From Ipomoea triloba (taxonomy: Eukaryota; Streptophyta; Magnoliopsida; Solanales; Convolvulaceae), in assembly GCF_003576645.1 (NCBI RefSeq), contig NC_044930.1:26175110-26239109 (forward strand): a DNA stretch of 64,000 nt, given 5' to 3'. The notes under the pieces were generated by a model. The model did no database searches, was not told the DNA's origin, and saw nothing but the letters and a program-made list of their open reading frames with translations. Shown piece by piece: positions 23,753 to 64,000 of this stretch (its first letter is position 1; the number at the start of each line of letters is the position of its first letter). The translations under genes and the position numbers were made by a program.

Positions 23753-24267
23753 NNNNNNNNNNNNNNNNNNNNNNNNNNNNNNNNNNNNNNNNNNNNNNNN
23801 NNNNNNNNNNNNNNNNNNNNNNNNNNNNNNNNNNNNNNNNNNNNNNNNNNNNNNNNNNNNNNNNNNNNNNNNNNNNNNNNNNNNNNNNNNNNNNNNNNNN
23901 NNNNNNNNNNNNNNNNNNNNNNNNNNNNNNNNNNNNNNNNNNNNNNNNNNNNNNNNNNNNNNNNNNNNNNNNNNNNNNNNNNNNNNNNNNNNNNNNNNNN
24001 NNNNNNNNNNNNNNNNNNNNNNNNNNNNNNNNNNNNNNNNNNNNNNNNNNNNNNNNNNNNNNNNNNNNNNNNNNNNNNNNNNNNNNNNNNNNNNNNNNNN
24101 NNNNNNNNNNNNNNNNNNNNNNNNNNNNNNNNNNNNNNNNNNNNNNNNNNNNNNNNNNNNNNNNNNNNNNNNNNNNNNNNNNNNNNNNNNNNNNNNNNNN
24201 NNNNNNNNNNNNNNNNNNNNNNNNNNNNNNNNNNNNNNNNNNNNNNNNNNNNNNNNNNNNNNNNNNN

Positions 24268-36017: not shown

Positions 36018-36559
36018 TCAAATTGCATACTCACTCCTTTTTTCCGAGCTTTCATTGGCCGGTAGCTCAATCTAATAAAAAAATATAATTAAAAACCAGA
36101 ACAATTAAGAAAAAATAGGAGAGGTATAGAACCATCATAAACTATTTATCAAAATTCATCATAATTCATAAATGGGAATTAGAGAGATACCTTAGTTACA
36201 TCACGAACAACAAGTCCTTCATATCCCATGACTCGTTGAGCTTGTTGGATCTCCTTTGCTGAAGTCACAAGAGAAGAACAACAATTGCCTAACTCAATTA
36301 ATCGCAATGTACAAACTTCCTCAAAATCATTTGGAAGTTTTTCCAAGTCCCAACAATATCTTAGAATTAGATGCTCCAAAACTGGGAAATGGTTTGCTTT
36401 TGCATTCCAATGTTCGAGATCAGAGCGCTCAATAAGGAAGAACCTTAGTTGTAGAAACTCCCCATCCTTGGGTGTCCACTCTGAGCCGCAGAAGGCAAAA
36501 TCTTTCAATTTGAGTAAATCAAGATTGGGTAACTTGCCAATAATATCCATATCTTCCCA
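36018..36559 (-). pseudogene. NLR fragment B: last LRRs and terminal exon of an R1-like gene
   Basis: The minus-strand frame from WEDMDIIGKLPNLDLLKLK (36559) to GLVVRDVTK (36191) matches the end of genes A, E and F closely. Exon 2 (36071-36018) would read IELPANESSEKRSEYAI then stop, after a TTATTAG acceptor. The donor is AAG|GTATCT rather than GTCTCT. No CC, NB-ARC or earlier LRRs are present: homology stops abruptly at 36559, where a copia retrotransposon fragment begins. It cannot encode a working receptor. If transcribed from the adjacent LTR it would give a short LRR-tail product in a different frame from gag. Confidence 0.88.
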
Positions 36560-43378: not shown

Positions 43379-43468
43379 GTTTTTTTTTTTTTTTTTTTTT
43401 TTTNNNNNNNNNNNNNNNNNNNNNNNNNNNNNNNNNNNNNNNNNNNNNNTTTTTTTTTTTTTTTTTTT
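43379..43468. repeat. Poly-T tract with assembly gap (N at 43404-43449)
   Basis: A T run on both sides of 46 undetermined bases. Confidence 0.9.
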
Positions 43469-49227: not shown

Positions 49228-52032
49228 ATGGATTTTGGTGTTGTAACTTCACTACTAGGAATAGTAGAGCAACTTCTTCTTCAGAAACCCTCACTACTAG
49301 TAGTTGAGAAAAAAGAAGAAGAGAAAAAGCAATTGAATTCAGCAATGGCTTGTGTTGTTGTAAATAGTCTACTAGGAATAGTAGATCAACTACAACTTCT
49401 TCTTCAGAAACCCCCACTTAATAATCCTCTTTTGATTCTTCCTGATGATGCTCAAATGATCCTATCCGCCTTAAAGGACAAGCTCCATTTCCTGCAAGCC
49501 TATCTTGACAATCCCGATCGCGATGAGGCAGTGGATAAAGAAATCAGAGATGTTGCAATGAAAGCAGAAGATGAAATTGAATCCAAGCTGGGAGAAGTTT
49601 ACTTGGCGGCTAACCAGGGTGAGGGTGAGGGAGTAGCAATAAAGGCTTGTGAAGATCTTCATCGGAGCTTGCAGCAAGTAGTCAAGGATTTTGAGTCTGT
49701 TGAAGTGCGCATCAGAGATAATCTGCAGCAAATAACACTACATACTACCTCCTCCTCCTCATCATCCTCATCCTCATCAGAGAACATAACGGTAGGAGTA
49801 GAAGATGATGTTGAGTATATAAAAGATATGCTCCTCATTCAATCATCTTCATCCAGACAACAACTACAAGTGGTTTCGATTTGCGGAATGCCAGGCACCG
49901 GAGTCACTACTTTGGCTAAAACCGCTTATGAAGATCCATTCATTGTGTCTCACTTTGACATTCGAGCATGGACGGTTGCATCTCGACCATACACTAGGAG
50001 AAAGCTACTCATTGCCATTTTAGGTTCTATTGTGTCGTCATTCACAACCGAGATCTCCAACAAAGACGATAACCAGCTAGCTCAACAGCTCTGCAAAATC
50101 CTGACGGGCCAAAGGTATTTGATTGTCATCGATAACCTTTGGACAACAGAGGCATGGGATGAATTGAAAGCATCTTTTCCACCCAATAGTAATGGAAGCC
50201 GAGTTCTGATAACTACTGCAGATCAGAGAGTGGCTCGTTCTCTTAGCTCAGGTATGCGTATTTTCCATAAACGTTTTCTCAATCCAGAAGAAGGCTGGAA
50301 TTTATTAAGCAAAAATGCGTCTAATGGAAAATATTGTCCGTCCCGAGAAATTGAGTTAATAGGAAGAAGCATTGCTAATAAATGTCAGGGCATACCACTG
50401 GCAATTGTTTTGATTGGTAGACTTCTGGCCACCCTCAACAACTCACCAAACCAGTGGGAGGATATTGAAACACAATTCAACAATCCATTAATCCGGTACA
50501 ACGATCCTTCTAGGATCTTGTGGCACACAGTTGAAGTTTGCTACAACTATTTGCCTAGTTATCTAAAAGCTTGTTTTCTTTATTTGGGAGGTTTTCCTGA
50601 GAGTACTGAAATTCATGTGAAAAAGTTGATAAAGTTATGGATAGCTGAAGGGTTTTTAAAATCAGAGATGAATAAAAGTTCCGAAGAGATAGCTGAGGAT
50701 TATTTGTGTGATCTTATCAACAGAAAGCTAGTTCAAGTTCACAAGAGGAGTTTGGATGGAAAAATCAAGTCCTGTATGCTTCACGAATCATTACATCAGT
50801 TTTGCTTCCAAAAAGCATATGGTGATGATGAGGAGAATATTAGTAAGGGGGAATGTAATTATTTTCTTGGCGGGCGCCGTTGGGTAAGTATTCAAGATAG
50901 TTTTTGGCCAATTACTCCAAATCATTTGATCAACTCTTCATTTAAAATTCGTTCCCTTCTTTATTTTGGTGAAAATTTATATCTTGCAAAGTGTTGGTTG
51001 ATATTCTCACATTTGAAGTTGTTAAGAGTGTTGGATTTATCATTATTAAAATATTGGCATGGCATGCCTAGTGAGATTGTGGATTTAGTTCATTTAAGAT
51101 ATTTAGCTTTAACAACTATAGGTTCTCTTTGTGACTTTCAATGGTTCAAGCTTCAAAGGTTGCAAACTCTCATTCTCTCCTCGTGGGCAAAAGAGTGTCA
51201 ATTACAACTGCCATGTAATGTTTTGGATTTGCCATGGTTAAGGCATGTGCGCTATGACAAAGGATGTTCATCGCATCTCCCAAACATGGTTCAAAAAAAT
51301 TTACAAACTCTTTCTTGGTTCAAAGTTACCGGCGAGGACTCAAGAACAACAAACTTTACAAAAGTTCCAAACCTGAAAGAGTTGGGGATCTATCTTGAAG
51401 GTGAAGTATTGTCTAATGCTCTTGACAGCCTTGCTCAGTTATGTCGCCTTGAGAAGTTAAAGATTAAAATGGGAAGGGTAGAGCGGTTTAATCTCCCAAA
51501 TTCTTTTCCATCAAACCTCAAGCAATTGACCCTTAATAATACGTATCTTTCTTGGGAAGATATGGACATTATTGGCAAGTTACCCAACCTTGATTTACTC
51601 AAATTGAAAGATTTTGCCTTTCGCGGCCCAGAGTGGACACCCAAGGATGGGGAGTTTCTACAACTACGGATATTCCTTATTGAGCGCTCTGATCTCGAAC
51701 ATTGGAATGCAAATGCAAACCATTTCCCAGAGCTGGAGCGTCTAATTCTAAGATATTGTTCGGACTTGGAAAAACTTCCAAATGATTTTAAGGAGATTCG
51801 TACATTGCGATTAATTGAGTTAGGGAATTGTTGTTCTTATCTTGTCACTTCAGCAAAGGAGATCCAACGACAAGCGGAACGAGACTTTGGATATAAAAGA
51901 TTTATTGTTCGTGATGTAACTAAGGTCTCTCTCTAATTCCTATTTATGAATTATGAATTTTGATAAATAGCCTATGAGCCTTTGGGTTCTGTTAGTCTTT
52001 TGTTTTCTTTGTTCGATTGTTTGTTTTCTTCT

Positions 52033-52075
<43 letters not shown>

Positions 52076-52528
52076 NNNNNNNNNNNNNNNNNNNNNNNNN
52101 NNNNNNNNNNNNNNNNNNNNNNNNNNNNNNNNNNNNNNNNNNNNNNNNNNNNNNNNNNNNNNNNNNNNNNNNNNNNNNNNNNNNNNNNNNNNNNNNNNNN
52201 NNNNNNNNNNNNNNNNNNNNNNNNNNNNNNNNNNNNNNNNNNNNNNNNNNNNNNNNNNNNNNNNNNNNNNNNNNNNNNNNNNNNNNNNNNNNNNNNNNNN
52301 NNNNNNNNNNNNNNNNNNNNNNNNNNNNNNNNNNNNNNNNNNNNNNNNNNNNNNNNNNNNNNNNNNNNNNNNNNNNNNNNNNNNNNNNNNNNNNNNNNNN
52401 NNNNNNNNNNNNNNNNNNNNNNNNNNNNNNNNNNNNNNNNNNNNNNNNNNNNNNNNNNNNNNNNNNNNNNNNNNNNNNNNNNNNNNNNNNNNNNNNNNNN
52501 NNNNNNNNNNNNNNNNNNNNNNNNNNNN

Positions 52529-52588
<60 letters not shown>

Positions 52589-52697
52589 TTAAATCCCTCA
52601 TTCCTGCCCTATTTTTCTTAATTGTTCTGGTTTTTAATTTTATTGTTTTTCTTAGGTTGAGCTGCCAACCAATGAAAGCTCAGGTAAAATGGTTTGA
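49228..52697 (+). CDS. NLR gene E: R1-like CC-NB-ARC-LRR protein with degenerate nucleotide-binding motifs, two exons
   Basis: Exon 1 is 49228-51924 and exon 2 is 52656-52697, joined ACTAAG|GTCTCT...TTCTTAG|GTTGAG; 912 aa ending VELPTNESSGKMV. Start chosen at the first ATG in the context AATTCAGCAATGG; a second identical context at 49345 results from a tandem duplication of the N-terminal segment. The architecture matches gene A, with full-length LRRs and block YLSWEDMDIIGKLP. However, the P-loop is GMPGTGVTT (codon 49903-49905 is Val, not Lys), kinase-2 is VIDNLW (Asn at 50134-50136, not Asp), and RNBS-B is LITTAD (Ala at 50218-50220, not Arg). The MHD-type motif is MLHES (Glu at 50785-50787, not Asp). 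The reading frame is otherwise fully open over about 2.7 kb, so the changes are not simple decay. ATP binding and hydrolysis are probably lost; it may act as a partner or decoy or be a young non-functional copy. The intron contains a poly-T gap. Confidence 0.88.
52030..52587. repeat. Poly-T tract with assembly gap (N at 52076-52528) in the gene E intron
   Basis: T runs border 453 undetermined bases. The homologous intron start of gene F has only CTTCTTCTTTTTTATTTTTG here, so the gap is an expanded T tract or an assembly artefact rather than missing coding sequence. Confidence 0.9.
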
Positions 52698-55945: not shown

Positions 55946-56919
55946 TGATGCCGTCTTAATGAATCTACACCATTATTATAATAATAATAATAATAATAAT
56001 TCAAGATCAATAATACTTTTAAATAAATTTAAATTATAGAGACATTGAGAAAATGAATTATATACCTTGGGAACTGGGAAGTCTGGCAGCCCGTTTTTTA
56101 ATGGAACAAATTGAGTTTTTTTTAAGACATATATTTCATTATTTTGTGTAATTGAGTGGCTATCCAATTTTTTTTTGAATATTACTGACTCTATTACAAT
56201 GCAGTATCTGTTCATAACTACTTTCTCAACCTATTGACTGAGTGGCTATCCAATTGATGAGTCATCTATCTAATTAAACAATCAATTAATTAATCATGCT
56301 TAGAGAAATGAACCCGGCCGACCTTATCTTTTGTTTTAATTATTGTTTGAACAATAACACCAACCAAATACTCCTCAGCTCCTCCAAGTACTGGTATTCA
56401 TATTTTGCTATACTTTCTAAACTAATAATTTAATTGGAGAAACATTAATAAAATATACTAGTTGCCTATTATTATATTTAATTCGAAACGAAATTTTAAT
56501 ATTATCAAGACAATTAATATACTAGTTGTATATTGTTATATTTAATTTGAGAGGAAATATTAATATTATCATGGCAACTAATCAACTATTATGCTATTTG
56601 TCTGTTGTTATATTTAATTTGAAAAAAGAAATCTTAATATTATCATGACAATTGACAAATAATATGTTAGGTTGTCTATTGTTATAGTTGATCAAGTTAT
56701 ATTTTGTGTAATTTAGTGGGTATCCAATTGATGAGTCATCTATCTAATTAAACAATCAATTAATTAATGATGCTTTGCTCAGAGAAATGAACCCTTGTTT
56801 TAATTATTGTTTGAACAATAACACCAACCAAATACATTCTAGAGTCTAGACAGTATAGCTAATTGCAAATTCTATTCTCCATCCCATAGATCCATCTATC
56901 AGTAGTTGAGAAAAAGAAG
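55946..56919 (+). promoter_or_regulatory. Upstream region of gene F with a duplicated promoter-proximal block
   Basis: The block TGGCTATCCAATTGATGAGTCATCTATCTAATTAAACAATCAATTAATTAAT...TTGTTTGAACAATAACACCAACCAAATAC occurs twice (about 56232-56371 and 56717-56836). Between the copies are TATTCATATTTTGCTATAC and ATTATCATGACAA repeat units. 55946-56210 is homologous, inverted, to the region upstream of gene A at 32880-33180, including an (ATT)n array. Confidence 0.65.
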
Positions 56920-59900
56920 ATGAATGATAAAAAGCAATTGAATCCAGCAATGGGTTATGTTGTTGTAAGTAGTCTACTAGGAACAGTAAATCATCTAAAG
57001 CTTCTTCTTCTTCAGAAACAACCCCCACATAATAATCCTTGTTTTACTACTCTTCCTGATGATGCTCAAATCATCCTATCCATCTTAAAGGAGAAGCTCC
57101 ATTTCCTGCAAGCCTATCTAGACAAACCTAAGCCCAAAATTACCACTGATCCCGATCGCGTGGCAGTGAAAAGGCTGGATGAAGAAATCAGAGCTGTAGC
57201 AATGAAAGCAGAAGATGAAATCGAGTCCAAACTGGGTGAAATTTACCAGGTGCAGGGTGAGGGAGTAGCAGTAAAGGCTTGTGAAGATCTTCATCGGAGC
57301 TTGCAGCAAGTAGTGAAGGATTTTGAGTGTGTTGAAGTGCAAATCAGAGATCTGCCAATGAGACATACCGCCTCAATTGATGATGCTTCTTCTTCTCCTT
57401 CTTCTTCAACACCACCTTGTTTACAGCTACACAACGTCTCCTCCAACTATGATTTAGAGAATACAATGTTTGGAATCGAAGGTGGTGATGAGAAAATAAA
57501 ACGCATGCTCATTCAAACTTCTTTGTCCACTCAACTACAAGTGGTTTCAATTTCGGGATTGAGAGGGACAGGTAAGACTACTTTGGCCAAAAAAGTTTAC
57601 GAAGATCCATCTATTGTGTCTCACTTTGACATTCAAGCATGGACGATTGAAGGTGGAGTACACAGTCTGAGAGATATACAGATTCATATTCTAAGCTGTA
57701 TTGTGTCATTGACCAAAGAAGAAATCTCCAAACAAAATGATGAGCAGCTAGCAGAGCAACTCCGCAAACTTCTGAGGGGCCAAAGGTATTTGATTGTCAT
57801 TGATGATCTTTTCTCCACAACGCCATGGAATGACCGTTGGACATCACAGGGGATATGGGATGGATTCATGAGATCATCTTTTCCAGATGATGGAAATGGA
57901 AGCCGAGTTCTGATAACTACTCGGGATATGAAAGTGGCTGAATTTGCTAGCGACTCAGATATGTGGATTTTCTACACAGATGGTCTGAAACCAGAAGAAA
58001 GCTGGAAATTATTAAGCAGAACTGCAACGTCTAATGGAAAATGGAGTAGTGTACCCCCTGAATTTGAGAAAATAGGGAGATGCATTGTTGAGAAATGTAT
58101 GGGAATGCCACTAGTAATTGTTTGGATTGGTGGACTTCTGGCCACACTCAACAACTCACCAAGGCAGTGGGAGGATATTCTGTTGAGCATTCCATCAAGC
58201 CGGTATGGTTTAGAGATATTGCTTTACACTTTTGAACTTTGCTACAACTATTTGCCTACTCACCTAAAAGCTTGTTTTCTTTATTTCGGAATTTTTCATG
58301 AGAATACAGAAATTCATGTGAAAAAGTTGATAAAGTTATGGGTAGCTGAAGGATTTGTAAACTCGGAGATGAACAAGAGTTTGGAAGAGGTAGCTAAAGA
58401 TTATCTGTGTGATCTTATCAATAGAAGGCTAGTTCAAATTCACAAGAAGAGTTTGGATGGAAAAATCAAATCATGTATGGTTCATGATATATTACATGAA
58501 TTTTGCTTGAAAAAAGCAACTAAGGAGGATATTGTGGAGGTTAGTTGGATGGCATATAATAAGTTTCTTGAAGGGCATCGTTGGCTAAGTCGTCAGGTTG
58601 ATTGTTGGTCAGATACTACAAGTTATTTTACTAATTCTTCACTTAAAACTCGTTCCCTTTTCTACTTAGATGAAAATTCATATCTTGCAAAGTCTTGCTT
58701 GATATTCTCGTCATCTTTGAAGTTGTTAAGAGTATTGGACTTATCACTAACAAAATATTGGCATGGCATGCCTTGTGAGATTGTGAATTTGGTTCATTTA
58801 AGATACTTAGCTTTAAAAACTATAGGTTCTGTTTGTAACTCTCAATTGTTTAAGCTCCAAAGTTTGCAAACTCTCATTCTCTCTGCGTGGACAAAAGAGT
58901 ATCAATTGCAACTGCCATGTGATGTTTTGGATTTGCCATGGTTAAGGCATGTACGCTTTGACAAGGGATCTTCATCTTATCTCCCAAACTTGATTCAAGA
59001 AAACTTACAAACTCTTTCATGGTTCAAAGTTATCGGCCGGGACTCAAGGACAACAAACTTTACAAAAGTTCCAAACCTGAAGGAATTGGGGATCTACATT
59101 GAAGGTGAAGTATTGCCTAATGCTCTTGACAACCTTGCTCAGTTACATCAACTTGAGAAGTTAAAGGTTAAAATGGGAAGGGTGGAGCGGTTTAATCTCC
59201 CAAATTGTTTTCCATCAAACCTCAAGCAATTGACCCTTAGTAATACATATCTTTCGTGGGAAGATATGGACATTATTGGTAATTTACCCCGCCTTGATTT
59301 GCTCAAATTGAAAGATTTTGCTTTTTGTGGCCCCGAGTGGACACTAAGGGATGGGGAGTTTCTACAACTAAGGTTCTTACTGATTGAGCGCTCTGATCTA
59401 GAAAATTGGAATGCAAATGCAAGCCATTTCCCAACTTTGGAGCGTCTAATTCTAAGATATTGTTGGGACTTGGAAAAACTTCCAAATGATTTTGAAGAGG
59501 TTTGTACATTGCAGTTAATTGAGTTAGGGAATTGTTGTTCTTCTCTTTTCACTTCAGCAAAGGAGATTCAACAAGCACAACGAGACTTGGGAAACGAAGG
59601 ACTTGTTGTTCGTGATGCAACTAAGGTCTCTCTCTAATTCCCATTTATGAATTATGAATTTTGATAAATAGCTTATGAGCATTTGGGTTCTGTTAGTCTT
59701 TAGTTTTCTTTGTTTGTTTGTTTTCTTCTTCTTCTTTTTTATTTTTGTTAAATCCCTCATTCATGTCCAATTTTTCTTAATTGTTCTGGTTTTTAATTTT
59801 ATTGTTTTTATTACACTAGTACAGAAACAGGCATCTGCGTCCGGAGTTATGGACTATCTGCGTCCGGAGTACTCTGGACGCATATGCCGGAGACGCAGCT

Positions 59901-62741
59901 GCCATCGACTATCTGCGTCCGGAACTGCCCAGTTCCGGACGCAGGTTTTTTTTTAATTTTTTTTTATTATATACCAGCTGTGTCCAGAACTGCCCAATTC
60001 CAGACGCAGCTGATTTTTGTTTTTTTTTTTAATAAATGTCAACTGCGTCCGGAACTGCCCAGTTCCGGACGCAGTTGAATTTTTTTTTTAAAATTTTTAA
60101 TATGCTATTTATTTGCTGTGCACCCCCAACAATTTTCTGTAGCATTTACAATATAATTCCTGTCCAGTTCTCAACACATACACATCAAAACATACCAATT
60201 TCAACATCTATCTATCCAACAAGTTCAACATCAAACCACACCACATACATCAAAACCATACACCAAACATCAAATCACACTTATCCAACACTTCAAAACT
60301 TCAAAGCTACTTCAAAGTTCTCAAAACTTCAACAATAAATAAATCAACTTCAACACTAGCTACTCCAAATCTAAATATTTCTCACCAATTCAAAGTAAAA
60401 CTAAGTTACCAAAATACTTAACGCATACCAAATAAAACATAATAAGTAAACATATAATGTTAATAGTAAACACATAATTTTAACACATACCAAATACTTA
60501 ACACATACATAATTACAATATTATAAAACATATAAGTCATTACATCATTACAACACTTTACTTACACAAAATATCATAAGCATTCTTCACAAAAGTATTT
60601 AGCCCAAATTTCACGAATTTCATTGATTTGATTCTCCATGTAGGACTTTGACCCCGCAAATGCTTACAAAAATTTAGAAATTATCAAATTATTAGTTTTA
60701 ACATTAATAAAATATAATTTAAAATTCTTTAGTTTTATTAAATTCTTCATACTCATAGTATTGAGTGCATATCTCAAACATATATCGCAAGACATAATAT
60801 CCGCACTCCACACTACCGGGTTGTATAGGACACTATAAATTATAAATTTTGATGTATATATATTAGAAAGTTAAACAATAAAACATTACTAATAACATTA
60901 TAAAATATATAAAACAATTTTGATATATACCTTAATTTCCCTCCATTTTAACAAATTTTTAGCTCTTTGTCCTTTCAAATTTGTTGCCGACCGAAATGCC
61001 CTATAATATACTCTCATAAGGTGAATTCAAAAGAATAATAATAGTTAATAATAATAAATAAATATTATTAGGAGTTACTTACACACACCGAAATGCCCTA
61101 TAATATACTCTCATAAGGTGAATTTGGTTAATTTTGGTTATATACTTTATTGAGTATTTACTTATATACTTGAATGTGATAATTATTTCTTATTTATTGG
61201 ACACTTTGTTTATTTTGATTATATACTTTATTGATAATTATTTGATTTACTTGAATTTTTTATAATTACTTAGCTTCTTATTATTTATTGTACACTTTAT
61301 TGTAAAATTTAAAATACTACCAAAAACTAATTAAAAATTTATTGGACACTTTGTTAATTTTGGTTATATACTTTATTGAGTATTTACTTATATACTTGAA
61401 TGTGATAATTATTTCTTATTTTTTGGACACTTTGTTAATTTTGATTATATACTTTATTGATAATTATTTGATTTACTTGAATTTTTTATAATTACTTAGC
61501 TTCTTATTATTTATTGTACACTTTATTGTAAAATTTAAAATACTACCAAAAACTAATTAAAAATTTATTGGACACTTTGTTAATTTTGGTTATATACTTT
61601 ATTGAGTATTTACTTATATACTTGAATGTGATAATTATTTCTTATTTTTTGGACACTTTGTTAATTTTGATTATATACTTTATTAATAATTATTTGATTT
61701 ACTTGAAAATTTAAAATACTACCAAAAACTAATTAAAAATTTTACCAACTAAAACTAACTAAATAATTTAAAATTTTAAATACTAATTAAAACTAACTAT
61801 TTACTTATATACTTTGTTAAAATACTAATTAAAATTAACTAAATAATTTAAAATATATTATTGAACATTCAAACACATAATAGCAAGTATATGGATATAA
61901 ATAATACACAATTTTATTAATTCAACTATATCACAATATTAATACCAAACACATACAATAATACATAATAATTAATCAAAATTAAATTTAAGAATAATAA
62001 ATATTTATTATGTATAAAACAAATAAATAAAATAAATTAAAAAAAAAATAACGTGCGTGCGTACCTGGATCGGCGACGGAGCGTGGGAGGCGGCAGGGAA
62101 GTGCGGCGGCGAGGGGAAGCGTCCGGCGGCGAGGGGAAGCGCCCGGCGGAGAGGGAGTGCGGCGGCGAGGGGCAGCGTCCGGCGGCGAGGGAGTGCGGGG
62201 TTGCGTTGGTCGGCGAAGTGCAGCGGCGCGGAGGCTTTGGAGGGCAGTGGCGACGGTGCTTTGAGCGGCGGCGGTGGCTGTGGAGAGCAGCGGCGCTGGC
62301 GGTGGCTGTGTCGACCGGAGGCGGTGGCTGTGGCTGTGGCGTCGGCAATGTGAAGACGAAGTTCGAACGACCAGATCCAGATCTACTTTTATATTTTATA
62401 AAAAAAAACAAAAAAAAAAAAAGAAAATAAAGGGTAGCTGCGTCCGAAGTTCGAACTTCGGACGCAGTTACGTGTCACGCTTCAAGCAGCTGCGTCCGAA
62501 GTTCTAACTTCGGACGCAGCTGCTTGATAGAGTCGGATCAGCTGCGTCCGAACTGGAAACTTCGGATGCAGCTGGCCATTTTTTTAAAAAAATTTAATTA
62601 AAATGTGGACAATTTAATTACAAAAATGCCACCGCCCCCATTTCGCGCGTCCGGACGCAGCTGGTCCTATATTTTTAGTCTATTTTGTACTAGTGTTAGG
62701 TTGAGCTGCCAACCAATGAAAGCTCAAGTAAAAAGGTTTGA
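56920..62741 (+). CDS. NLR gene F: R1-like CC-NB-ARC-LRR protein with a transposon in its intron
   Basis: Exon 1 is 56920-59625 and exon 2 is 62700-62741, joined ACTAAG|GTCTCT...GTGTTAG|GTTGAG; 915 aa ending VELPTNESSSKKV. The ATG at 56920 gives MNDKKQLNPA; the ATG at 56950 (MGYVVVSSLLG) aligns with the starts of A, D and E and may be the real one. Motifs: AEDEIESK near 97, P-loop GLRGTGKTTLAKK (213-225), kinase-2 YLIVIDDLFS (290-299), RNBS-B GSRVLITTRD, GLPL CMGMPLVIVW, RNBS-D CFLYFGIFHEN, MHD-type MVHDIL. LRRs to the end. After kinase-2 there are about nine extra residues (SQGIWDGFM) not seen in A or D. The intron has grown to 3074 bp by a CACTA insertion whose right end lies 4 bp before the exon. 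Intron retention would end the protein with VSL. Confidence 0.88.
59839..60077. repeat. Left subterminal CTGCGTCCG/CGGACGCAG hairpins of the CACTA element
   Basis: Three near-perfect inverted pairs such as CTGCGTCCGGAACTGCCC with AGTTCCGGACGCAG, plus two half units. In CACTA elements subterminal repeats are the transposase-binding sites. Confidence 0.85.
60545..61003 (-). pseudogene. Ulp1-like C48 cysteine peptidase remnant in the CACTA element
   Basis: Minus strand: exon 61002-60931 reads FRSATNLKGQRAKNLLKWREIK with donor AAG|GTATAT. The next, from 60832 after TATAG, reads CPIQPGSVECGYYVLRYM and FEICTQYYEYEEF. A further block at about 60650-60560 reads MENQINEIREIWAKYFCEE. The QPGSVECGYYV block is the catalytic-Cys region of Ulp1/SENP peptidases, often carried by plant CACTA and MULE elements. 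The upstream His/Asp part of the domain is missing, so it cannot be active. Confidence 0.75.
61120..61790. repeat. 225-bp tandem repeat, about 2.8 copies, in the CACTA element
   Basis: Unit starts at ATTTTGGTTATATACTTTAT (about 61131, 61357, 61582) and includes TTGGACACTTTGTTAATTTT and AAAATACTACCAAAAACTAA. Copies differ by few bases. A separate 95-bp duplication (CCGAAATGCCCTATAATATA at 60992 and 61087) precedes it. Confidence 0.85.
62050..62360. other. GC-rich GGCGGCGAGGGG block of the CACTA element
   Basis: A sharp rise in GC in an AT-rich element, built from GCGTCCGGCGGCGAGGGG(A/C)AG repeats and GGCGGTGGCTGTGG repeats. Frames on both strands are open but low in complexity; I do not call a protein. 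Confidence 0.6.
62437..62575. repeat. Right subterminal CTGCGTCCG/CGGACGCAG hairpins of the CACTA element
   Basis: Three inverted pairs such as AGCTGCGTCCGAAGTTCG with AACTTCGGACGCAG. The arms share CTGCGTCCG with the left end, but the loop halves differ (GAAGTTC instead of GGAACTGCCC). Confidence 0.85.
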
Positions 62742-63785
62742 GTCTGCAATTGGGTGATTTTGTGATTAAGCTAATCTGGTTTAGGCAAGGTATGCATATC
62801 AATGGAACATCAAAACCTACCATCTTATTTAGACATTGTATTTTAGGTATTTGCATATAATTAGCTTTTCACTTTGCGTTTCTTGAAGGGAATCAAAAAC
62901 AAGTTACAATGATGCATTGGCTTCCCAGAAATGCATCCTAGCTGGCTGATTTTGTGGTCTGCTCATTTGCTTGTCTGTTATCTCAAGGATGTTTCATTGG
63001 GTTGATGTTGGAGTTCATCTTCCATAATGTTGGTTGGTTATTAATATTGTATTTGATATGTTCGAATGTTTTATAACTCATAAGTGACAGTCTGTCTATT
63101 ACTAGATTGTGAGATTCATTGAAGTTTTAGTGTAAATATGATTTGGTATTTGGTTGAGATGTTAGTTCTGAACTTTATCCAAACTATATGGTCATTGGGT
63201 TTGTATGTCTGTTATCACAATGATGTTTCATTGGGTTCTTTGAGTTGTTGTTGGAGTTCAATGTTGGTTGGTTGGTTGAACTGTTATTGTATAAAAACAA
63301 TAGTACATTGAAATGTTAAAGTTGTATTGTGCCTTTACCGACTTTCGCTCAACAATTTCCCTCTTAGCACTAACCAGTCTTAAATGTGATCTAGTTTTGA
63401 ATCACTTATTAGATAGGATCAAAAGTTTACCAGCCTTTATGTTTGTTGAAGATGCAACTTTATTTCTTTATACTCGCCACACATTTTCAAGACGTTGGGT
63501 GCTGGATTTGACCATTTACCAGCCTTTGCCCATCCAACAATCCCCTATCCCTAGTTACCAAGTGCTAAACTTAGCCTTTATGTTTGTTGATTGATCTAAG
63601 ATGTTTGTGGTGTGTTGACGTGTTGTGGAAATTATGAACTTCTGTTTGTAGGTTGTCCAATCTCTAATGGTTAGCTATAAAGCCGCACCATAATAGCTAA
63701 ACAGGTCGAGACTACTTGGACTATGTTAGAAATTTCTCTAGCTTAACCCACCTAAAAATTGGGCTAAGCGAGACTAACCTAGTCA
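62742..63785. repeat. 3' flanking module of NLR gene F
   Basis: Very similar to 52698-53520 after gene E: the same TTTAGGCAAG|GTATGCATA donor, the TTGAAGGGAATCAAAAACAAG block, GTGAGATTCATTGAAG and TTAGATAGGATCAA. 63590-63785 matches 37500-37551 and 38035-38100, giving an element-free comparison for the insertion at 37552-37993. Confidence 0.75.
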
Positions 63786-63787
63786 GG

Positions 63788-64000
63788 TTTTTTTTTTTTT
63801 TTTTTTTTTGAAAAGAAACAATACACTTTCATTAAAAAGCATCAGCCTGTAAAGGAACATACAGAAAATCGGGAGGGCAACTAGTCCCCTCCACAACCAA
63901 CATAAAAAACGGTTTTTCTAGCCAACAAGTGGGTTACCGTATTCGCAGGTTGTTTAGCAAACATAAAACTAATTTTTGAGAAATTTTTAGCTAGTTTATG
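63788..64000 (-). mobile_element. LINE 3' end (RNase H tail and poly-A), continues beyond the window
   Basis: Minus strand: HKLAKNFSKISFMFAKQPAN then TVTHLLARKTVFYVGCGGD and a stop, followed by a short 3' UTR and a poly-A tail (T run at 63788-63808). The QPANTVTHLLAR block is the C-terminal RNase H signature of plant LINEs. The frame is open up to the window edge. Confidence 0.75.

What the first reader, a model, noticed from the sequence alone, without database searches (positions are those of the whole stretch)
59811..62741. CACTA transposon ends 4 bp from the 3' splice site of an NLR gene
The TTA target duplication at 62696-62698 supplies part of the acceptor TTAG|GTTGAG. Compared with gene E (TTTTTCTTAG|GTTGAG), the original pyrimidine tract now lies 2.9 kb upstream, and the DNA before the acceptor is the transposon end (TTTTGTACTAGTG). 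Splicing must use transposon sequence or fail. If it fails, the frame stops after VSL, leaving an almost complete receptor.
Basis: partly seen in the sequence, partly recalled or inferred. Interest (0 to 1): 0.8.

Follow-up and report, generated by a model that had tools for sequence, protein, structure and literature searches.

The report
Transposon splits immune-receptor gene's splice site
In a wild relative of sweet potato, a jumping gene has landed inside the signal that marks the end of an intron in a disease-resistance gene; the sequence suggests that the cell may now splice into the jumping gene and change the receptor's tail, which is a new instance of a known kind of event and still needs RNA evidence.

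Summary
A 2,882-bp CACTA element (59814-62695, TSD TTA) sits between TTA and G of the 3' splice site of the last coding intron of an R1-like NLR gene with an open frame, in an Ipomoea triloba-like genome. Joined flanks align gap-free at the site with paralogs B, D and E; five annotated Ipomoea proteins use the exon 1/exon 2 junction. The element is an internal-deletion derivative of a tnp2-encoding family. The likeliest processed product is therefore exon 1 spliced into the left end, giving a transposon-coded tail of 41-70 aa. Retention (VSL stop) and native-AG splicing of a 3,074-nt intron are rivals. Every outcome leaves the first 902 residues intact. No RNA was available; the choice between outcomes is inference, and approximate splice scores do not decide it. 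CACTA ends as splice sites and transposons in NLR introns are known.

The parts
56920..59625 (+). Exon 1 of gene F, R1-like NLR (NB-ARC, winged helix, LRR; no coiled-coil domain hit in Pfam); frame continues to 59637 (VSL stop) if the intron is retained. Start may be 56950
   Evidence: ORF; Pfam PF00931 E 3e-41, PF23559, PF23598; homologs
59626..59813 (+). Host part of the last coding intron (25% GC, 57% T), donor AAG|GTCTCT
   Evidence: paralog alignment
59776..59781 (+). Candidate branch site CTTAAT (A at 59780), present in B, D, E, L025, L026 but not L029; second candidate A at 59796
   Evidence: motif scan only
59797..59810 (+). Host U-rich (pyrimidine) tract of the split acceptor
59811..59813 (+). 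Target-site duplication TTA, left copy
59814..62695 (-). CACTA element, 2,882 bp, internal-deletion derivative; in larger copies the transposase lies on the strand opposite to gene F
59814..59826 (+). Left TIR CACTAGTACAGAA
59818..59819 (+). AG of CACTAG: first AG after the host branch-site candidates; predicted hybrid acceptor, 70-aa TE tail
   Evidence: approximate score -0.8
59823..59824 (+). AG of TACAG: predicted hybrid acceptor, 43-aa TE tail
   Evidence: score 2.5
59829..59830 (+). AG of AAACAG|G: predicted hybrid acceptor, 41-aa TE tail
   Evidence: score 1.4
59837..60074 (.). Left subterminal repeats GCGTCCGGA and palindromes
59945..59946 (+). Possible donor CAG|GTTTTT; with 59824 or 59830 would make an in-frame 120- or 114-nt TE exon that keeps the native tail (with 59819 it is out of frame)
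   Evidence: recalled donor matrix
61124..61801 (.). Internal tandem repeat, 3 copies of 226 nt
62436..62574 (.). Right subterminal repeats GCGTCCGAA and palindromes
62683..62695 (-). Right TIR (TTTTGTACTAGTG on + strand); its own AG ends at 62693, 6 nt before the native AG, and gives TGT TAG (Cys-stop)
62696..62698 (+). Target-site duplication TTA, right copy; supplies TTA of the native acceptor TTAG
62698..62699 (+). Native acceptor AG; upstream AGs at 62660, 62678 and 62693 are in frame and each leads to a stop
   Evidence: score 2.1 after insertion, 4.1 in the empty site
62700..62789 (+). Exon 2 (VELPTNESSSKKV, stop 62739-62741), followed by a probable 3'UTR donor AAG|GTATGC

Best explanation
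Shown: an internal-deletion CACTA element inserted exactly inside the 3' splice site (TTA^G) of the last coding intron of an R1-like NLR gene with an open frame and split that site in two. The left half keeps the host branch-site candidates and pyrimidine tract and is now followed by AGs of the element's left end. The right half keeps the host AG and exon 2 and is now preceded by the right TIR. Inferred: the spliceosome, which in plants is thought to take the first usable AG after the branch point, mostly joins exon 1 to the left end of the element (after 59819, 59824 or 59830). The mRNA then ends in the AT-rich element, giving a full receptor whose native 13-residue tail VELPTNESSSKKV is replaced by 41-70 transposon-coded residues. 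Retained-intron (VSL) and native-AG forms would be minor products.
For: Exact insertion and empty site. Branch-site candidates at 59780 and 59796 lie 40/24, 45/29 and 51/35 nt upstream of the first base after the three left AGs (35/19 in the empty allele), with no AG before 59818 within the 60 nt scanned; CTTAAT is kept in five of six other loci. PMC3017782 (passages) states that branch points usually lie 18-40 nt from the 3' splice site and that data suggest first-AG scanning in plants. Composition switches from 25% GC (intron) to 58% GC (59820-59944) at the left junction; that such a contrast helps dicot splicing is recalled. No yTnAy branch motif lies within 60 nt of the native AG in the inserted allele, and three in-frame AGs that lead to stops precede it. 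The element carries 13 AATAAA hexamers on the sense strand. Same-genus precedent: a Tpn1 (CACTA) element in DFR-B of I. nil gives chimeric transcripts (PMC5105172, passages). CACTA ends are said to sometimes mimic splice sites (PMC4219821, passages).
Against: No RNA data. With a recalled, approximate dicot matrix the left AGs (-0.8, 2.5, 1.4; ranks 28, 4 and 8 of 100) are not clearly better than the native AG in the inserted allele (2.1, rank 5), and all lie below the empty site (4.1); an AG deeper in the element (59977) scores highest, 4.4. The first AG, CTAG|TA, is itself poor. No database protein bears the predicted tail (only proteins of roughly 158-500 aa were candidates, 67 of them). No protein matching gene F was listed (120 best of 431 shown; 7,989 candidates scored), so it may be silent. 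An AG within 17 bases of a random start occurs in 57% of cases. A 13-kb CACTA element in a soybean intron was spliced out accurately, though at lower levels (PMC4219821).
Confidence: 0.45

Rival explanations
1. The whole 3,074-nt intron is spliced at the native AG, with the transposon's right end acting as pyrimidine tract, perhaps at reduced level and dependent on whether TNPA-like protein or methylation covers the subterminal repeats (Spm-suppressible type). The receptor is then normal.
For: Native AG keeps TTAG|GT; T is 52% at -25 to -5 (76% in the empty site); score 2.1, rank 5 of 100 AGs. Soybean TgmR* precedent and statement that CACTA ends mimic splice sites (PMC4219821 passages).
Against: No yTnAy motif within 60 nt; in-frame AGs 6, 21 and 39 nt upstream each lead to a stop; a complete branch-point/pyrimidine-tract region with AGs lies 2.9 kb earlier in the transcript.
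Confidence: 0.2
2. The intron is not removed: transcripts are cleaved and polyadenylated inside the AT-rich element and the receptor ends in VSL (905 aa), lacking the 13-aa tail.
For: 13 AATAAA hexamers on the sense strand of the element, whose middle 1.9 kb is 22% GC. Proximal polyadenylation in an intronic transposon of an NLR gene is documented for RPP7 (PMC7529245 and PMC8116057 passages). Annotated relatives that end in TKVSL at this position exist: P0005 (I. trifida) and P0152 (I. batatas); a third, P0146, ends in KVSL after a longer tail.
Against: The donor and the branch point/pyrimidine tract region are intact and close together, so a short intron can be spliced before the element is transcribed far; such hexamers are expected in AT-rich DNA (no shuffled control was run).
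Confidence: 0.2
3. Gene F is a silent or decaying paralog and the insertion has no consequence.
For: No annotated protein matching F was listed, although five proteins (P0002, P0003, P0007, P0009, P0014) match other loci on the same contig at 99-100%; the cluster contains a truncated copy, D.
Against: 905-aa ORF without an internal stop and NB-ARC motif strings in place; dN/dS 0.75 against B and 0.63 against E, which is weak constraint and says nothing about the time since insertion. B and C are also unmatched though their ORFs are open.
Confidence: 0.15

Closest known systems
TgmR* CACTA element in intron 2 of the soybean R (MYB) gene (PMC4219821, abstract and passages seen)
   Same: CACTA element inside a host intron; element ends proposed to interact with splicing; subterminal repeats that may bind transposase
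   Different: TgmR* is 13 kb and its intron is spliced accurately in the stable line; here the element sits inside the 3' splice site itself and splits it
Spm-suppressible and dSpm alleles of maize (mentioned in PMC4219821 passages; bz-m13 and its details recalled)
   Same: CACTA terminal sequences used or usable as splice sites
   Different: Recalled: the classical cases are insertions in pigment genes with a phenotype; here a host/TE hybrid acceptor at a natural intron end is predicted from sequence only
Tpn1 family, CACTA elements of Ipomoea nil (PMC5105172, abstract and passages seen)
   Same: Same superfamily and genus, 3-bp TSD, non-autonomous copies, some in 5' UTRs and introns, chimeric transcript with DFR-B
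   Different: Tpn1 has 28-bp TIRs; this family has about 13-bp TIRs and GCGTCCGGA-type subterminal repeats
RPP7/COPIA-R7 with EDM2 and FPA (PMC7529245, PMC8116057, passages seen)
   Same: Transposon in an NLR intron, with alternative RNA processing
   Different: LTR retrotransposon in intron 1, ahead of the coding frame, with regulated proximal polyadenylation; here a DNA element at the last coding intron where only the C-terminal tail is at stake

Membership tests
CACTA (En/Spm) superfamily | Termini CACTA...TAGTG as terminal inverted repeats | tested here: met
   12 of first 13 positions identical
CACTA (En/Spm) superfamily | 3-bp target-site duplication | tested here: met
   TTA/TTA; of 15 fetched relatives 6 showed a right end by exact motif within 10 kb, 5 of those 6 with matching 3-bp flanks
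CACTA (En/Spm) superfamily | Subterminal short repeats | tested here: met
   12 GCGTCCGGA/GCGTCCGAA-type motifs, all inside the element in this window
CACTA (En/Spm) superfamily | tnp2 (TNPD-like) transposase in larger relatives | tested here: met
   PF02992 E 1.3e-91 in L017 and 7.6e-77 in L009, with PF13963, PF13960, PF13952. In the window element 7 ORFs were scanned (6 of its own frames of 24 listed, plus the left-end frame), 0 Pfam hits
Spm-suppressible / intron-spliced CACTA alleles | Transcripts spliced at or across CACTA ends | not testable with these tools
   No RNA data for this plant
Spm-suppressible / intron-spliced CACTA alleles | Dependence on trans-acting element protein or methylation | not testable with these tools
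   Needs methylation and expression data
R1-like NLR (late blight resistance homolog) | NB-ARC, NLR winged helix and LRR, with closest relatives annotated R1A/R1B | tested here: met
R1-like NLR (late blight resistance homolog) | N-terminal coiled-coil (Rx-N type) domain | tested here: inconclusive
   No such domain among the 6 Pfam families at E 0.001; some relatives carry PF18052

The most novel reading that the evidence does not exclude
One insertion inside an acceptor turned one splice site into two competing hybrid sites. The left one exonizes the transposon end and gives the immune receptor a new 41-70 aa tail. If the CAG|GTTTTT donor at 59945 is also used after acceptor 59824 or 59830, a 120- or 114-nt in-frame transposon exon is inserted before the unchanged native tail, so the receptor gains 40 or 38 TE-coded residues without losing any.
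Probability: 0.35. Interest if true: 0.5.

Novelty: new member of a known kind. Interest (0 to 1): 0.36.

Why it matters
It is a clean natural experiment on how a plant spliceosome chooses an acceptor when branch point/pyrimidine tract and AG are pulled 2.9 kb apart, with six uninserted relatives of the site in the same genome as controls. It also shows a simple route by which a DNA transposon could append new residues to an immune receptor without touching its core. It would not overturn anything: CACTA ends as splice sites and transposons in NLR introns are known.

Tried and rejected
TIR-TIR looping: on paper the two TIRs could form a 13-bp RNA stem (one G-U) that would bring the host branch point next to the native AG and hide some of the other AGs. 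Partition-function folding of 59600-62760 gave pair probability 0.0 (three decimals) for all 14 register pairs. In the same fold the G of nearly every AG in question is predicted paired (59819 0.70, 59824 0.96, 59830 1.00, 62693 1.00, 62699 0.99), which tells the rivals apart no better. Such long folds are unreliable; nothing supports looping, so I dropped it.

TE-coded tail in other proteins: no hit at E 0.1 among 67 candidates. Rfam on 56000-64000: nothing at gathering thresholds. Pfam on 7 ORFs of the element: nothing at E 0.01.

Splice scores come from acceptor and donor matrices that I recalled approximately, not fitted to Ipomoea; they do not separate the rivals. I did not build an Ipomoea matrix. 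Gene E as sole comparator was judged insufficient, because F resembles B and D at the acceptor and E in exon 2.

Assembly error: cannot be tested without reads; exact TIRs, TSD and an empty site in paralogs argue against it. Gene E's intron holds an assembly gap (52076-52528), so it cannot be compared in full.

Full report
The host. The window lies at G000:C15:26175110-26239109 of a 461,989,178-base, 17-contig genome. Proteins named Ipomoea triloba (P0002, P0003, P0007, P0009, P0014) sit on a contig of the same length as C15, 27,111,266, and match loci of this genome at 99-100% over the parts compared, so the genome is I. triloba or indistinguishable from it here. The window holds several R1-like NLR genes. 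Gene F (56920-59637) has NB-ARC, winged-helix and LRR domains and an open 905-aa frame; Pfam showed no coiled-coil domain.

The gene model. In F, exon 1 ends ...DATK at 59625 and exon 2 starts VELPTNESSSKKV at 62700. Of 158 proteins retrieved, five (P0001, P0004 from I. nil; P0002, P0003, P0007 from I. triloba) carry K[VI]ELPTNE across this junction, 33 carry a looser exon-2 motif, and three end in KVSL (P0005, P0146, P0152), two of them at this position, the unspliced reading. P0007 is gene E: over 560 aligned residues it has one difference from my unspliced translation, which falls at the junction (S for E). No protein matching F was listed, where the best hit is 77% identical; B and C also lack one among the proteins retrieved.

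The insertion. CACTAGTACAGAA at 59814 and TTTTGTACTAGTG ending at 62695, TTA on both sides. Flanks joined with one TTA align gap-free at the site with B, D and E. A 161-base query from gene E finds nine matches in the genome: six single matches across the site (E itself, L025, L026, D, L029, B), F in two pieces overlapping by exactly three query bases, and one partial match further away. So the target was TTA^G of the acceptor TTTTTATTAG|GTT.

The element. A search with its first 590 bases gave 90 matching pieces in the genome (only the best candidates are scored, and pieces of one copy are counted apart), and the exact first 26 bases occur 13 times, this copy included, with 0 for the reversed control. 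Of 15 relatives fetched, six show a right end by exact motif within 10 kb; five have matching 3-bp flanks (CCG, TAT, ATA, TGA, TAT), one does not (ATC/CTC). The 9,558-bp copy L009 and the 9,126-bp copy L011 align to both parts of the window element and carry about 6 kb more in the middle. L009 and the 7,836-bp L017 encode tnp2 transposase pieces (PF02992, E 7.6e-77 and 1.3e-91) with the associated domains, on the strand opposite to gene F. No such domain was found in the seven ORFs of the window element that I scanned. It is an internal-deletion derivative.

What the insertion did to splicing signals (sequence shows directly). Native intron: 189 nt. In the inserted allele the host branch-site candidates (A at 59780 and 59796) and U-rich tract are followed at once by CACTAG|TACAG|AAACAG|G. 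Introns ending there would be 194, 199 or 205 nt and add 70, 43 or 41 residues before a stop. On the right, the native AG at 62699 would end a 3,074-nt intron. AGs at 62660, 62678 and 62693 are in frame with exon 2, and each runs into an in-frame TAG (tails LVLYF, SILY and C). No yTnAy motif is found within 60 nt of the native AG. Composition changes from 25% GC (intron) to 58% GC (59820-59944) at the left junction.

How it most likely works (inference). Plant 3' splice sites are thought to be chosen by scanning to the first AG after the branch point, usually 18-40 nt away (PMC3017782, passages). From A 59796 the three left AGs fall within that range (24, 29, 35 nt); from A 59780 they fall at or just beyond its edge (40, 45, 51 nt). 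This points to the left end of the element. Downstream, the element offers 13 AATAAA hexamers on the sense strand, so the chimeric mRNA probably ends within it. The matrix scores, recalled and approximate, are 4.1 for the empty site, -0.8, 2.5 and 1.4 for the left AGs and 2.1 for the native AG after insertion; they do not decide the matter, and a deeper AG at 59977 scores 4.4, the best of 100. Rivals are native-AG splicing as in soybean TgmR* (PMC4219821, passages), retention with polyadenylation in the element as in RPP7 (PMC7529245 and PMC8116057, passages), and silence of the gene. The first two may coexist with the left-end form.

Consequence. Every outcome considered keeps the receptor through ...DATK (902 residues). 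What changes is a tail that varies among relatives (13 aa here, 18 in I. nil P0001 and 17 in P0004). The VSL reading is encoded at the start of the same intron in B, D, E, L025, L026 and L029 too, though not in C, so loss of the tail by retention was possible before the element came.

Known or new. CACTA ends that mimic splice sites, CACTA elements in introns, and chimeric transcripts from a CACTA element in Ipomoea are in print (PMC4219821, PMC2613891, PMC5105172; passages). In Arabidopsis, CACTA is among the superfamilies enriched in transposon-linked alternative splicing (PMC10241880, passages). The listings of my ten literature searches showed no report of this locus or of a CACTA element splitting an NLR acceptor, but only an open-access library was searched, the listings were capped, and I opened passages of seven papers. 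I file it as a new member of a known kind.

Noticed in passing
52025-52590: Gene E's homologous intron holds long poly-T runs on both sides of a 453-base assembly gap (52076-52528), so its true length is unknown; other gaps lie at 23753-24267 and 43404-43449
   Followed up: partly
36021-36559 (-): Truncated NLR paralog (D) with only the last part of exon 1 found, donor GTATCT and an exon 2
   Followed up: partly
L015 (G000:C4), element 5,689 bp: Family copy with unequal 3-bp flanks (ATC/CTC), possibly mutated or recombined
   Followed up: no
62041-62350: A 310-bp stretch of 72% GC inside the otherwise AT-rich element; no Pfam match in the frames tested
   Followed up: partly
61124-61801: Three 226-bp tandem repeats inside the element, second copy 99% and third 72% identical to the first
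   Followed up: no
P0005 (I. trifida): Annotated protein that joins a C-type and a B-type NLR piece and ends in KVSL; probably a gene-prediction chimera
   Followed up: no
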